Position numbers and translations under genes: made by a program | The notes under the pieces: model-generated | Databases searched by the model: none | What the model was told of the DNA's origin: nothing | What the model saw: only the letters and a program-made list of their open reading frames with translations | Source of the DNA: Lineus longissimus | Taxonomy: Eukaryota > Nemertea > Pilidiophora > Heteronemertea > Lineidae | Reading direction: 5' to 3' | Length of the DNA stretch: 64,000 nucleotides | Assembly: GCF_910592395.1 (NCBI RefSeq) | Contig: NC_088325.1 | Location: 14,076,109 to 14,140,108 of the forward strand | Part shown: positions 32,418 through 50,691 of the stretch, in pieces | How positions within the stretch are numbered: the stretch's first letter is position 1 | Layout: the number at the start of each line of letters is the position of its first letter

Positions 32418-32519
32418 ATGGATTTACCGAATGTCTTGCATGTTTTGGTCGCTTTTCTACTGTGTTTATTACAGATCGCAAATGGAAAATTTATCAAAGG
32501 GACGCTACAGACAACAGAG
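32418..32519 (+). CDS. TMEM145: TMEM145-like exon 1: signal peptide and ectodomain start
   Basis: ATG 32418-32420 opens 34 codons: a leucine-rich leader ([17 protein letters not shown]), cleavage likely after IANG, then [11 protein letters not shown]. It ends at donor GAG|GTACGA in phase 0, and exon 2 continues NWVFLTRF. The equivalent mature start is conserved in vertebrate TMEM145. Confidence 0.85.
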
Positions 32520-50500: not shown

Positions 50501-50691
50501 TTTTGAAAACATGCAATCCAAACAAAATAAGCGTATCGTTAACATGTGTTTCTCCTTGTTCGTACATGTCTATTGACCTTTTTTCGTCTCCTCTTCAGCC
50601 AGTGGACGTGGACTCATTCCCTCATCACAAGCCAGGTGAACACACTCTTGACCACTTCATCACTGTTCCGTCTATGGAAAACTCCTCTTAA
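32418..50691 (+). CDS. TMEM145: TMEM145/GPR180-family seven-TM protein with four sets of tandem alternative exons
   Basis: Constant exons: 32418-32519, 33106-33180, 42154-42238, 43548-43697, 43790-43962, 44399-44571, 46189-46248, 46709-46834, 48176-48250 and 50599-50691 (TAA). Alternatives: A 34097-34165 or 34378-34455; B 37568-37765, 38081-38326 or 40023-40262; C 42921-42992 or 43101-43172; D 44816-44936 or 45268-45388. One choice per set gives 523-542 residues. Family marks: [28 protein letters not shown][IV][53 protein letters not shown]. Known members (GOST proteins) have a secretory-pathway or surface GOLD-like ectodomain and seven TM helices. Start chosen because ATG 32418 begins a clear signal peptide ([13 protein letters not shown]) followed by [11 protein letters not shown]. 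All junctions agree in phase. Confidence 0.93.
33106..33180 (+). CDS. TMEM145: TMEM145-like exon 2: conserved first ectodomain strands
   Basis: Acceptor GTACTTTCAG, donor GAA|GTAAGT, phase 0 at both ends, 25 codons. It encodes [17 protein letters not shown] then SFKLDYPE, the most conserved ectodomain block of the TMEM145/GPR180 group. Confidence 0.92.
34097..34165 (+). CDS. TMEM145: TMEM145-like alternative exon A1 (ectodomain strand)
   Basis: Acceptor AATTTTCCAG, donor AAG|GTAACG, 69 bp, phase 0 at both ends. It encodes [19 protein letters not shown] then DKDK. It is a diverged duplicate of exon A2, 212 bp downstream, sharing the block VQSILLYYD. It has no N-glycosylation sequon. Confidence 0.85.
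34378..34455 (+). CDS. TMEM145: TMEM145-like alternative exon A2 (ectodomain strand)
   Basis: Acceptor CTTTTCGTTACAG, donor AAG|GTATGT, 78 bp, phase 0 at both ends. It encodes [20 protein letters not shown] then YKNKSK, including an NKS sequon absent from A1. The D-x-x-x-Q-W-x-A-V-Y pattern is closer to vertebrate TMEM145 than A1 is. Confidence 0.88.
36190..36240 (+). repeat. tRNA-derived SINE fragment
   Basis: GTGTCGGATTCCCGGTGACC followed by AGGGTTCGATT resembles the anticodon arm to B box of a tRNA, then a T-run. It lies in a TMEM145-like intron between the A and B exon sets. Confidence 0.45.
37568..37765 (+). CDS. TMEM145: TMEM145-like alternative exon B1 (cysteine-rich end of ectodomain)
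   Basis: Acceptor TATCGTTACCTAG, donor GAG|GTAGGG, 198 bp, phase 0 at both ends, 66 codons. It begins [19 protein letters not shown] and ends [19 protein letters not shown]. It keeps the four cysteines shared by all three B exons and has one extra (LCNC). It has a sequon NET. It is the shortest of the three: the loop after the NNQ motif is reduced. Confidence 0.9.
37874..38038 (+). repeat. Tandem duplication of about 82 bp just upstream of exon B2
   Basis: GGACCTCTTGTTCTTGGCAG and TTTCCAGCTGAGTGTCAGG each recur about 70-83 bp apart. Copy 2 ends about 40 bp before exon B2. It contains CAG-rich decoy acceptor-like words. Confidence 0.8.
38081..38326 (+). CDS. TMEM145: TMEM145-like alternative exon B2 (cysteine-rich end of ectodomain)
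   Basis: Acceptor TTTTTTCACACAG, donor GTG|GTAATA, 246 bp, phase 0 at both ends, 82 codons. It begins [19 protein letters not shown] and ends [19 protein letters not shown]. Sequon NES. The longer loop includes [11 protein letters not shown]. Confidence 0.9.
38668..39012 (-). repeat. Composite SINE-like element with 5S rRNA-like segment and 75-bp direct repeats
   Basis: Direct repeats of CCACTGGGCCATAAAGGAAT and flanking sequence occur at 38668-38748 and 38936-39012. On the minus strand 38921-38872 reads GTGGAAGTTAAGCAACG, then GGATCGGTGACC, resembling the internal control region of 5S rRNA. The preceding TGGCCCAGTGGTTGGC resembles a tRNA A box. It lies in the intron between B2 and B3. Confidence 0.55.
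39225..39460 (+). repeat. Dispersed intronic repeat family 1, copy 1
   Basis: AATGCTGAATTTGACAGC and CTGTGGATCTTTGG and GGCATTTTTGTG recur in order at about 44030-44220, in another intron of the same gene. Confidence 0.7.
39595..39850 (+). repeat. Dispersed intronic repeat family 2, copies 1 and 2 (tandem)
   Basis: TTTTTCCTGGTCAATGTGAA and CAGGTTTCGAATGGCCAG occur at 39597 and again at about 39750, 152 bp apart. Both copies lie upstream of exon B3. Confidence 0.82.
40023..40262 (+). CDS. TMEM145: TMEM145-like alternative exon B3 (cysteine-rich end of ectodomain)
   Basis: Acceptor TCTTCTACTCCACAG, donor CGG|GTAATT, 240 bp, phase 0 at both ends, 80 codons. It begins [19 protein letters not shown] and ends [19 protein letters not shown]. 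Sequons NKT and NST. The loop carries [11 protein letters not shown]. Confidence 0.9.
42154..42238 (+). CDS. TMEM145: TMEM145-like exon: ectodomain-to-TM1 junction
   Basis: Acceptor CTGCCCTTTCAG, donor TTCT|GTAAGT. It encodes [18 protein letters not shown] then FYHFSADEF, matching the family junction before TM1. It leaves in phase 1, as required by both C exons. Confidence 0.92.
42321..42797 (+). repeat. 13-bp minisatellite, about 36 copies, upstream of exon C1
   Basis: Unit is YGCTGCTGGTTAG with Y and the last bases varying. It fills most of the intron before the TM1 alternatives. It is bounded on the right by a B-box-like GGTTCGATCAC (42822-42832). Confidence 0.95.
42921..42992 (+). CDS. 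TMEM145: TMEM145-like alternative exon C1 (TM1)
   Basis: Acceptor TTCTCTTTCAG, donor AGTT|GTAAGT, 72 bp, phase 1 at both ends. It encodes [15 protein letters not shown] then LAVLTMHTS. It has the same length and phase as C2 and about 9 of 24 residues identical. Confidence 0.87.
43101..43172 (+). CDS. TMEM145: TMEM145-like alternative exon C2 (TM1)
   Basis: Acceptor TGTTTGACAG, donor GCAA|GTAAGT, 72 bp, phase 1 at both ends. It encodes [15 protein letters not shown] then VFALSCYMA. The intron between C1 and C2 is only 108 bp. Confidence 0.87.
43281..43345 (+). repeat. Dispersed intronic repeat family 2, copy 3
   Basis: GGCTGGTCCTTGATGCAGG followed by TTTCAGATGGCC matches the core of copies 1 and 2. 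It lies in the intron just downstream of exon C2. Confidence 0.7.
43548..44571 (+). CDS. TMEM145: TMEM145-like constant exons for TM2 to TM6 start (43548-43697, 43790-43962, 44399-44571)
   Basis: 43548-43697 encodes [19 protein letters not shown] and TM2. 43790-43962 encodes TM3 ([17 protein letters not shown]), [11 protein letters not shown] and TM4. 44399-44571 encodes [20 protein letters not shown]5 and the start of TM6 ([12 protein letters not shown]). The last leaves in phase 2 (TG|GTACGT). Introns are compact in this part, about 92 and 436 bp. Confidence 0.92.
44030..44220 (+). repeat. Dispersed intronic repeat family 1, copy 2
   Basis: It shares ATGCTGAATCTGATAG, AATGGAAAGATATCTGTCCC, TGTCTGTGGATCTTTG and GGGGCATTTTTGTG with 39225-39460. 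Confidence 0.7.
44816..44936 (+). CDS. TMEM145: TMEM145-like alternative exon D1 (end of TM6, loop, TM7)
   Basis: Acceptor ACTTTTCACAG, donor TTG|GTGAGT, 121 bp, entering in phase 2 and leaving in phase 0. It encodes [30 protein letters not shown] and [10 protein letters not shown]2 has the same length and phase; 14 of 40 residues are identical. Including both would shift the frame. Confidence 0.9.
45268..45388 (+). CDS. TMEM145: TMEM145-like alternative exon D2 (end of TM6, loop, TM7)
   Basis: Acceptor ACTGCTTTCAG, donor TTG|GTAAGT, 121 bp, entering in phase 2 and leaving in phase 0. It encodes [31 protein letters not shown] and FAGYIFFL. The next constant exon begins ILTRPAAAN with either choice. 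Confidence 0.9.
46189..50691 (+). CDS. TMEM145: TMEM145-like constant C-terminal exons (46189-46248, 46709-46834, 48176-48250, 50599-50691)
   Basis: 46189-46248 encodes [20 protein letters not shown], conserved after TM7. 46709-46834 encodes [13 protein letters not shown] and [12 protein letters not shown]; the NFTDLF motif parallels vertebrate TMEM145. 48176-48250 encodes a Gly/Ser-rich stretch ([17 protein letters not shown]). 50599-50691 encodes [19 protein letters not shown] and ends at TAA. All are phase 0. The C-terminal tail is polar and disordered in appearance. Confidence 0.88.
46361..46650 (+). repeat. 98-bp tandem repeat, three copies, in TMEM145-like intron
   Basis: GACAGTGGAGGTCTC starts at 46366, 46464 and 46562. 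Each copy has GGCTCTGTGGTGGAACTG and CGGACTGACTGAC. It is non-coding. Confidence 0.93.
47247..47312. repeat. (TCA)n microsatellite
   Basis: About 20 TCA units lie in the intron between the 46709 and 48176 exons. Confidence 0.97.
48360..48420 (-). repeat. Fragment of dispersed AGAGAGGTGTCC repeat
   Basis: TTATAGAGAGGTGTCCGTTA and GGTTCCACTG resemble, in reverse complement, the array at 53830-54140. Confidence 0.5.
49010..49470 (-). pseudogene. Degenerate non-LTR reverse transcriptase fragment
   Basis: A minus-strand frame of 159 codons contains [15 protein letters not shown], the fingers/palm motif of LINE reverse transcriptases. The expected FADD motif and downstream regions are disrupted or out of frame. 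It lies antisense in the last intron of the TMEM145-like gene. Confidence 0.55.

What the first reader, a model, noticed from the sequence alone, without database searches (positions are those of the whole stretch)
32418..50691. TMEM145-like gene with four clusters of tandem alternative exons (up to 24 isoforms)
Seen: at four protein positions there are 2, 3, 2 and 2 adjacent exons, each with good GT-AG sites and matching phase, each encoding a diverged version of the same family segment. The versions keep family hallmarks ([15 protein letters not shown]; the D-I-x-F-L TM1 pattern; P-I-V and K-V-V in TM6/7), so they are under selection rather than decaying. Known: members of this family (GPR180, TMEM145, GOST fold) have a GOLD-like ectodomain and seven TM helices; I know of no described combinatorial exon sets in them. 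Inference: one exon is chosen per set, giving 2x3x2x2 proteins that differ in the ectodomain and helix bundle, a candidate recognition or tuning system.
Basis: partly seen in the sequence, partly recalled or inferred. Interest (0 to 1): 0.96.

Follow-up and report, generated by a model that had tools for sequence, protein, structure and literature searches.

The report
Ribbon-worm TMEM145 with swappable exon sets
A ribbon-worm gene for a seven-helix membrane protein, a relative of a human hearing and cilia gene, carries two or three interchangeable copies of four protein segments, and related animals vary at some of the same segments, so one gene could make up to 24 receptor-like proteins; this has still to be shown on real transcripts.

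Summary
The window lies in the nemertean Lineus longissimus; the gene is a TMEM145 ortholog (GOST family). Four sites carry 2, 3, 2 and 2 adjacent homologous exons with GT-AG sites and matching phase; all 24 one-per-set transcripts are open. The two database isoforms visible here use one copy per set (3b-4c-6b-10a, 3b-4a-6b-10a). Copies 3a, 4b, 6a and 10b are in neither, although 4b has an ortholog on another organism's contig. The copies are old (synonymous sites saturated or nearly so) yet open; all 47 exon-4 segments tested keep four cysteines. New here: isoforms, near-identical sequence pairs or tandem-copy predictions from Lingula, Dreissena, Mactra, Paralvinella, oysters and possibly amphioxus vary at exon 4, TM1 or TM6/7, so the same sites were duplicated repeatedly or kept since deep time. 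Best reading: mutually exclusive exon sets that diversify ectodomain and helix bundle. Exclusivity is built in only for the 121-nt TM6/7 pair, where double inclusion shifts the frame; the other sets are multiples of three and no RNA-pairing signal was found. Function is inferred. No paper on this turned up in the searches named.

The parts
32418..32519 (+). E1: start codon and signal peptide
   Evidence: matches start of the database isoforms; weak profile hit
33106..33180 (+). E2, constant, start of ectodomain
34097..34165 (+). E3a, diverged copy of ectodomain segment (23 aa)
   Evidence: 12.9 bits; not in either visible isoform
34378..34455 (+). E3b, family-like copy (26 aa)
   Evidence: 29.7 bits; in isoforms X3, X6
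37568..37765 (+). E4a, family-like copy of four-cysteine GOLD segment (66 aa)
   Evidence: 79.0 bits; in X6
38081..38326 (+). E4b, diverged copy (82 aa)
   Evidence: 49.7 bits; ortholog P0121 on another organism's contig; not in either visible isoform
40023..40262 (+). E4c, diverged copy (80 aa)
   Evidence: 56.6 bits; in X3
42154..42238 (+). E5, constant
42921..42992 (+). E6a, diverged copy of TM1 (24 aa)
   Evidence: 9/24 identical to E6b; not in either visible isoform; no profile hit at E<=1
43101..43172 (+). E6b, family-like copy of TM1
   Evidence: 12.8 bits; in X3, X6
43548..43697 (+). E7, constant (TM2)
43790..43962 (+). E8, constant (TM3-TM4)
44399..44571 (+). E9, constant (TM5, start of TM6)
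44816..44936 (+). E10a, diverged copy of TM6 second half and TM7
   Evidence: (29.0 bits); in X3, X6
45268..45388 (+). E10b, family-like copy of TM6 second half and TM7
   Evidence: 58.3 bits; not in either visible isoform
46189..46248 (+). E11, constant (end of TM7, helix 8)
46709..46834 (+). E12, cytoplasmic tail
47145..47162 (+).
   Evidence: in both visible isoforms, AG before and GT after
48176..48250 (+). E13, cytoplasmic tail
50599..50691 (+). E14, last coding exon with TAA
42325..42796 (+). 13-bp minisatellite, 36 copies, in the intron before the TM1 pair (relevance unknown)

Best explanation
This is a TMEM145 gene, with no second close copy seen in the genome by the family search, in which four internal exons were tandemly duplicated long ago and kept as alternative exons; one copy per set is chosen during splicing, so that one gene makes up to 24 proteins (more if the microexon is optional). 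Shown: exons, frames, splice sites, age, retained scaffold, two database isoforms with one copy per set, and variation at the same sites in other phyla. Inferred: strict mutual exclusion, enforced for the TM6/7 pair by the frameshift on double inclusion and for the other sets by an unidentified splicing control; and the function, which is to exchange surfaces on the GOLD ectodomain (E3, and E4 loops between fixed cysteines) together with TM1 and TM6/7. In related GOST proteins H6 borders the slot into the 7TM cavity; that TM1 and TM7 stand next to each other is general 7TM knowledge, not measured here. The protein would thus change partner, client or lipid specificity in different cell types.
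For: 24/24 open combinations and matching phases. 8 of 9 variants detected by a Lineus-free profile. The family search of the own genome found five matches: two exons of this gene, two on C3, one on C10. Of 6 exon pairs put into the dN/dS script, 5 were computed (the E6 pair failed for a wrong frame): dN 0.39-0.71; dS not computable (saturated) in 4 and 2.0 in one. E4: four cysteines in 47/47 segments tested, third cysteine to RxRWW 10 residues in 46/47, RxRWW to last cysteine 11 in 47/47, so length change sits in the two loops. Isoforms X3 and X6 of Lineus use different E4 copies with every other aligned residue identical. Other animals: Lingula X2/X3 differ at TM1 (15/24 identical there, 68/68 in E4) and in the rest, at the C-terminus (317/327); Dreissena X2/X1 at E4 only (31/62 there); oyster-like P0018 and Magallana P0127 at E10 (19/40 there, 383/390 in the rest). 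Paralvinella and Mactra predictions carry three E4-like copies in a row. E4b has an ortholog (P0121) whose read-through past the donor is alike for a few residues. Models of X3 and X6 give the same helix and strand order over E4.
Against: No transcript reads were available. 3a, 4b, 6a, 10b are absent from the two isoforms seen (6 more sequences of the P0001 cluster were not visible). E3, E4 and E6 copies are multiples of three, so double inclusion or skipping would stay in frame; Tubulanus X4 skips E4 altogether. 12 intron pairs tested for complementarity gave z between -1.5 and +1.2. Isoforms are database gene models, in part predicted. For function: single mutants of the worm gene did not change cilia length (PMC11317154 passage).
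Confidence: 0.78

Rival explanations
1. Tandemly duplicated exons that are alternative but not strictly exclusive: cassette exons that may be skipped or doubled, giving extended loops or broken topologies in some transcripts.
For: E3, E4, E6 copies are multiples of three; Tubulanus X4 skips E4; Mactra and Paralvinella predictions join several E4 copies in one protein, though the Paralvinella one also reads through non-conserved sequence between two copies.
Against: Two of two visible Lineus isoforms and the Lingula and Dreissena pairs carry exactly one copy per site. A doubled TM1 would invert topology (inference). E10 doubling shifts the frame (121 nt).
Confidence: 0.15
2. Some copies are relics: duplicated exons no longer spliced in, kept open by chance or by recent loss.
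For: Four of nine copies (3a, 4b, 6a, 10b) are in neither visible isoform; 3a scores 12.9 bits against the family and 6a is not hit.
Against: Synonymous sites saturated in 4 of the 5 computed pairs, yet no stop in 249 diverged codons, or 129 codons for 3a, 4b and 6a alone (about 0.002 by the same arithmetic); splice sites intact at all nine; 4b kept with four cysteines on another organism's contig; 10b is the family-like copy, hardly a relic.
Confidence: 0.1
3. Assembly artefact, allelic copies or recent tandem gene duplication misread as exon sets.
For: Tandem arrangement; repeats nearby.
Against: Copies share only 35-57% of residues in the 5 pairs computed, with saturated or nearly saturated synonymous sites, and 9/24 in the E6 pair, so they are not alleles or assembly doublings; no second set of constant exons in the window; chromosome-level long-read assembly (PMC8593623 passages).
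Confidence: 0.01

Closest known systems
TMEM145 (GOST family) of vertebrates and invertebrates
   Same: Both TMEM145_N and GPR180/TMEM145_TM Pfam domains; 44-58% local identity to the other 118 of the 120 listed hits; GOLD plus 7TM model, Foldseek match to TMEM87A at E 7e-8.
   Different: Exon sets at four sites. Other TMEM145 genes seen here show variation at one site each; vertebrates were not tested for sets.
Muscle myosin heavy chain (Mhc) genes of protostomes
   Same: Several sets of mutually exclusive exons in one gene; seven in Capitella, with gains and losses among phyla (PMC3912159, passages).
   Different: A cytoplasmic motor with EST and cDNA evidence; here a membrane protein, whole transmembrane helices exchanged, cDNA not seen.
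Drosophila Dscam1
   Same: Combinatorial exon sets altering an ectodomain (recalled; PMC3228551 passages mention potentially 95 such exons).
   Different: Far fewer variants here, no intron-pairing signal found in 12 pairs, no recognition function known.
WLS and TMEM87A (GOST proteins)
   Same: GOLD domain over a 7TM cavity with a slot between H5 and H6, proposed to detect soluble and lipid parts of a client together (PMC9711517, passages).
   Different: 10-12% sequence identity over the TMEM87A fold match; no exon sets known to me; client of TMEM145 unknown.

Membership tests
TMEM145 | TMEM145_N domain (PF21892) over its cut-off | tested here: met
   152 and 165 bits, cut-off 28.1, both isoforms
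TMEM145 | GPR180-TMEM145 TM domain (PF10192) over its cut-off | tested here: met
   178 and 162 bits, cut-off 23.7
TMEM145 | Best matches are TMEM145 of other animals | tested here: met
   most named hits of the 120 listed are TMEM145, from nemerteans to mammals; some are unnamed or hypothetical
GOST fold | GOLD-like beta domain followed by seven TM helices | tested here: met
   AlphaFold2 models, pLDDT 77 and 79; the only Foldseek matches at E<=0.001 are 3 chains of TMEM87A
TMEM145 | Ciliary or stereociliary location | not testable with these tools
   Reported for C. elegans tmem-145 (PMC11317154) and hair cells (PMC12569810, PMC12716839 citing Roh et al.), passages only
Mutually exclusive exon sets | Similar length | tested here: met
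Mutually exclusive exon sets | Conserved splice sites and reading phase | tested here: met
Mutually exclusive exon sets | Homology, adjacency, no constant exon between | tested here: met
   homology weakest for E6 (9/24) and for E3 (23 aligned residues, 57%)
Mutually exclusive exon sets | Exactly one copy per transcript | tested here: inconclusive
   2 of 2 visible Lineus models; no reads
Mutually exclusive exon sets | A device that enforces exclusion (frameshift, sterics or RNA pairing) | tested here: inconclusive
   Frameshift for E10 only; inter-copy introns 108-1696 nt while the constant E7-E8 intron has 92 nt, so length alone is no steric bar; no pairing signal in 12 intron pairs

The most novel reading that the evidence does not exclude
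TMEM145 is a combinatorial recognition or client-selection protein that several invertebrate lineages have diversified independently at the same structural sites: loops on a fixed cysteine scaffold in the GOLD domain, TM1, and TM6/7. Splicing exchanges the soluble and the membrane-facing part of one binding site separately, so that a sensory or epithelial cell picks a partner-specific version for its cilia or extracellular links.
Probability: 0.22. Interest if true: 0.9.

Novelty: new variant of a known kind. Interest (0 to 1): 0.74.

Why it matters
Human TMEM145 has been placed in the links of hair-cell stereocilia and the nematode protein in sensory cilia (papers cited, passages), but what the protein binds is unknown. 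If many animals swap the same segments, those segments mark where specificity lies, and natural pairs differing mainly at one site (Dreissena E4, Lingula TM1, oyster TM6/7) are ready-made tools for finding partners. It would also be a case of whole transmembrane helices exchanged by splicing in a seven-helix protein, and of repeated or very old exon-set evolution outside the classic Dscam and myosin genes.

Tried and rejected
RNA pairing between introns as the selection device: duplex energies for 12 chosen intron pairs (at most 400 nt of each) against 30 shuffles each, z -1.5 to +1.2, none notable; among inverted repeats in the gene (25 of 66 pairs shown) I saw none tied to the sets. Steric exclusion by short introns: not forced, since a constant 92-nt intron is present.

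Common origin of copies: seven AU tests. Not rejected: diverged E10 of Lineus, oysters and Pinctada as one clade (p 0.33); the Lineus E10 pair as one clade (0.49); all oyster and Pinctada E10 as one clade (0.21); the nemertean E4 set (0.42); a mixed E4 set across phyla (0.39). Rejected: Mactra copies 1 and 3 as nearest kin (3e-7) and, marginally, the three Paralvinella copies as one clade (0.03). Segments are short (41 and 68 columns). In TM1 a glutamate at position 206 is in both Lineus copies and a tyrosine in both Lingula copies, which hints at independent TM1 duplications; it is one site.

Other genes of the family in this genome: GPR180/TMEM145-type matches on C3 and C10. In the fetched stretches the longest tblastn match is 24% over 188 residues, and the profile gives 3 hits in L006-L011, none a tandem copy. 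A search of the own genome with the protein never ran (tool busy).

Rows left out: one search aligned 7 pairs, numbers per site were computed for 5. The two left out are Ostrea/Magallana, which share the diverged E10, and Ptychodera/Glandiceps, two species with scattered differences and no single site. The Branchiostoma pair is two species, so its E4 difference (42/64 against 350/371 in the rest) only suggests a set there. P0018 is an unnamed assembly product; that it is an oyster is inferred from identity. Of the 120 hits listed in each, 59 proteins (one of them a primate) were cut into segments. The 47 exon-4 segments are 37 of those proteins plus tandem copies, two fragments and the three Lineus copies; Tubulanus X4 (no E4), Haliotis rubra P0141 (garbled there, no RxRWW) and Mactra copy 2 (partial) were not among them. 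Vertebrates were not examined for such sets. An earlier count said that the profile found nine variants; the call shows eight. Entry 1 guessed a sea star or amphioxus; that was wrong.

Paper searches for a prior report: TMEM145 (53 papers, 25 listed), mutually exclusive exons + GPR180 (none), mutually exclusive + exons + nemertea (listing only), transmembrane protein 145 + exon (listing only), mutually exclusive + exons + TMEM145 (passages concern human liver cancer). In what I saw none reports exon sets in this gene; subscription journals and preprints are mostly not held, and most of the 53 papers were seen as listings only. Passages seen of PMC8593623, PMC9711517, PMC11317154, PMC12569810, PMC12716839, PMC3228551, PMC3912159, PMC7432180; abstract and Results of PMC9013439, not used in the argument.
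Full report
Where it is. The closest proteins to the gene come from Lineus longissimus (94% and 86% identity by the search's local alignment, both on a contig of 15,888,539 bases), and the held genome (391,118,348 bases, 30 contigs) agrees in size with the published assembly of that species (391 Mb, 19 chromosomes, 32 scaffolds; PMC8593623, abstract and passages). 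The isoforms stored as P0001 (X3) and P0002 (X6) match the window's exons.

What is there. The gene's coding part runs from 32418 to 50691 on the plus strand. Fourteen exon positions make the protein, four of them with 2, 3, 2 and 2 adjacent copies. All 24 choices of one copy per set are open and end at the same stop (counted without the microexon). A profile made from 36 non-Lineus sequences and run over 3,382 peptides of both strands finds 8 of the 9 copies (two of them weakly) and no further one. At three sites, one copy is clearly family-like and the others are diverged: E4a 79.0 bits against E4c 56.6 and E4b 49.7; E10b 58.3 against E10a 29.0; E3b 29.7 against E3a 12.9. At the fourth, E6b has 12.8 bits and E6a is not among the hits.

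Identity of the gene. Both isoforms tested carry TMEM145_N and GPR180-TMEM145_TM well over the cut-offs (the two proteins tested were 3b-4c-6b-10b and 3a-4a-6a-10a, so these choices cover eight of the nine copies). AlphaFold2 models of the two stored isoforms (pLDDT 77 and 79, pTM 0.74) show a beta-rich ectodomain and seven helices; the only Foldseek matches at E <= 0.001 are three chains of human TMEM87A, a GOST protein. Sequence search of the PDB with the alignment found nothing. In the X3 model E3 covers residues 60-85 and E4 86-165 of the ectodomain, E6 covers residues 194-217, most of TM1 (195-222), and E10 covers residues 384-423, that is the second half of TM6 (367-397) and TM7 (400-425). 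E4a and E4c give the same order of one helix and four strands with different loop lengths.

Are the copies real exons or relics? In the 5 pairs computed the copies share 35-57% of residues; synonymous divergence is beyond computation in 4 and 2.0 in the fifth, while dN is 0.39-0.71 (the E6 pair failed there for a wrong frame). For E6 the identity is 9/24. Yet 249 diverged codons hold no stop (chance 6e-6 by simple arithmetic). Of 47 exon-4 segments from many species, including tandem copies except the partial Mactra copy 2, all 47 keep at least four cysteines; the third cysteine stands 10 residues before RxRWW in 46 of 47 and the last cysteine 11 after its start in 47 of 47, so that length changes fall in the two loops. 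All three Lineus copies have an N-glycosylation sequon in the second loop, as do 19 of the 47 segments in all. E4b has a close relative, P0121 (76% over 66 columns in the tree; 69% in the search), predicted on a 3,921-base contig of unnamed origin, and the read-through beyond the donor is alike for a few residues (V-V-I/M-F-S-S), which suggests an exon with a kept donor site in another, probably nemertean, animal. E4b groups with it (99/91) and both with E4c (98/91).

What E10a means. It differs from all 53 other sequences of the 55-row alignment at three otherwise invariant positions (F384W, W401H, F422L) and has Q where 50 of 53 have E404. Both visible isoforms use E10a, not the family-like E10b. 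So the 'standard' version of TM6/7 is the one for which use is not shown; this tells against reading the diverged copies as minor extras.

The same sites elsewhere. Lingula X2 and X3 differ at TM1 (15/24 identical there) and at the C-terminus (317/327 in the rest), with E3, E4, E10 and E11 identical; Dreissena X2 and X1 differ at E4 only (31/62, with 360/360 in the rest); an oyster-like assembly product (P0018) and Magallana P0127 differ at E10 (19/40 against 383/390 in the rest), and P0127 also lacks 20 residues at E11; Branchiostoma floridae X1 and B. lanceolatum X2, two species, differ most at E4 (42/64 against 350/371). Predicted proteins of Paralvinella and Mactra hold three E4-like stretches in a row. 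The diverged E10 is shared by Ostrea and Magallana and groups with Pinctada (99/98); the other oyster version falls elsewhere in the tree, but only weakly, and putting all of them in one clade is not rejected (p 0.21). Mactra copies 1 and 3 are not nearest kin (p 3e-7), and copy 3 goes with Mya, Mercenaria, Ruditapes and one unnamed sequence (100/99), so this E4 set is older than the species. Whether the sets of different phyla share an origin cannot be decided from such short segments. Against a simple picture, Tubulanus X3 has one, very divergent E4 and X4 lacks E4, and no E3 set was seen outside Lineus; two unnamed sequences (P0029, P0032) have an E3 shortened like E3a in the one form seen.

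How it most likely works. One copy per set is spliced in. For E10 the length of 121 nt makes double inclusion a frameshift. E3, E4 and E6 copies are multiples of three, and I found no device that would keep them exclusive: introns between copies are 108-1,696 nt while a constant intron of the same gene has 92 nt, and intron pairing does not exceed shuffles in the 12 pairs tried. A trans-acting, tissue-specific choice is the simplest remaining idea (inference). E4 varies while the other sets stay the same in the two isoforms seen; whether the choices are independent is open.

What for. From passages: GOST proteins such as WLS and TMEM87A have a GOLD domain above a 7TM cavity that opens to the outside and, between H5 and H6, to the membrane, and were proposed to sense soluble and lipid parts of a client at once (PMC9711517); C. 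elegans tmem-145 is reported only in ciliated sensory neurons and in their cilia, though its mutant had normal cilia length (PMC11317154); TMEM145 is cited as part of stereocilia links (PMC12569810, PMC12716839). The exchanged pieces lie in the GOLD domain and in TM1, TM6 and TM7. A change of partner, client or lipid preference by cell type is therefore my best guess; it is inference, with no binding or expression data and no coordinates to show that the pieces face one another.

Comparison with known kinds. [quoted passage not shown] PMC3228551, passages); by that paper 90 of 16,180 other exons (0.56%) on the fly X chromosome did so. Several sets in one gene are known from muscle myosin (seven in Capitella; PMC3912159, passages) and Dscam1 (recalled). 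I found no report for TMEM145 or GPR180 in the searches listed under Tried and rejected. I rate it a new variant of a known kind: known splicing logic, but in a seven-helix protein of a poorly understood family, exchanging whole transmembrane helices, with variation at the same sites in several phyla.

Limits. No transcript reads; isoforms are database models, and six further sequences in the Lineus cluster could not be seen. One 'own genome' search stayed unanswered (tool busy). Vertebrate TMEM145 was not tested for such sets. The alignments behind the trees are 41 and 68 columns.

Noticed in passing
42325-42796: A 13-bp minisatellite of 36 copies fills most of the intron just upstream of the TM1 exon pair; its length may vary between individuals and could affect splicing.
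   Followed up: no
46360-46651: A 98-bp unit repeated three times in the E11-E12 intron; an ATC repeat of about 22 units lies at 47248-47312.
   Followed up: no
37930-38039: A 34-bp repeat of about three copies directly upstream of E4b.
   Followed up: no
38621-39893: Further direct repeats in the E4b-E4c intron, with related pieces near 43231-44191; perhaps dispersed repeats.
   Followed up: no
30695-31738: C2H2 zinc-finger reading frame with nine matched fingers, just upstream of the TMEM145 gene.
   Followed up: partly
21096-21590 and 26001-26471 (minus strand): Two related reading frames, 28% identical over 131 residues, without a Pfam match: a possible small family.
   Followed up: no
22402-22808: A 63-bp repeat that is open in several frames.
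   Followed up: no
47145-47162: 18-nt in-frame microexon in the cytoplasmic tail; whether it is optional is unknown.
   Followed up: partly
L006 2571-7790: A distant GPR180/TMEM145-type gene on contig C3 of the same genome, with no tandem exon copies in the fetched stretch.
   Followed up: partly
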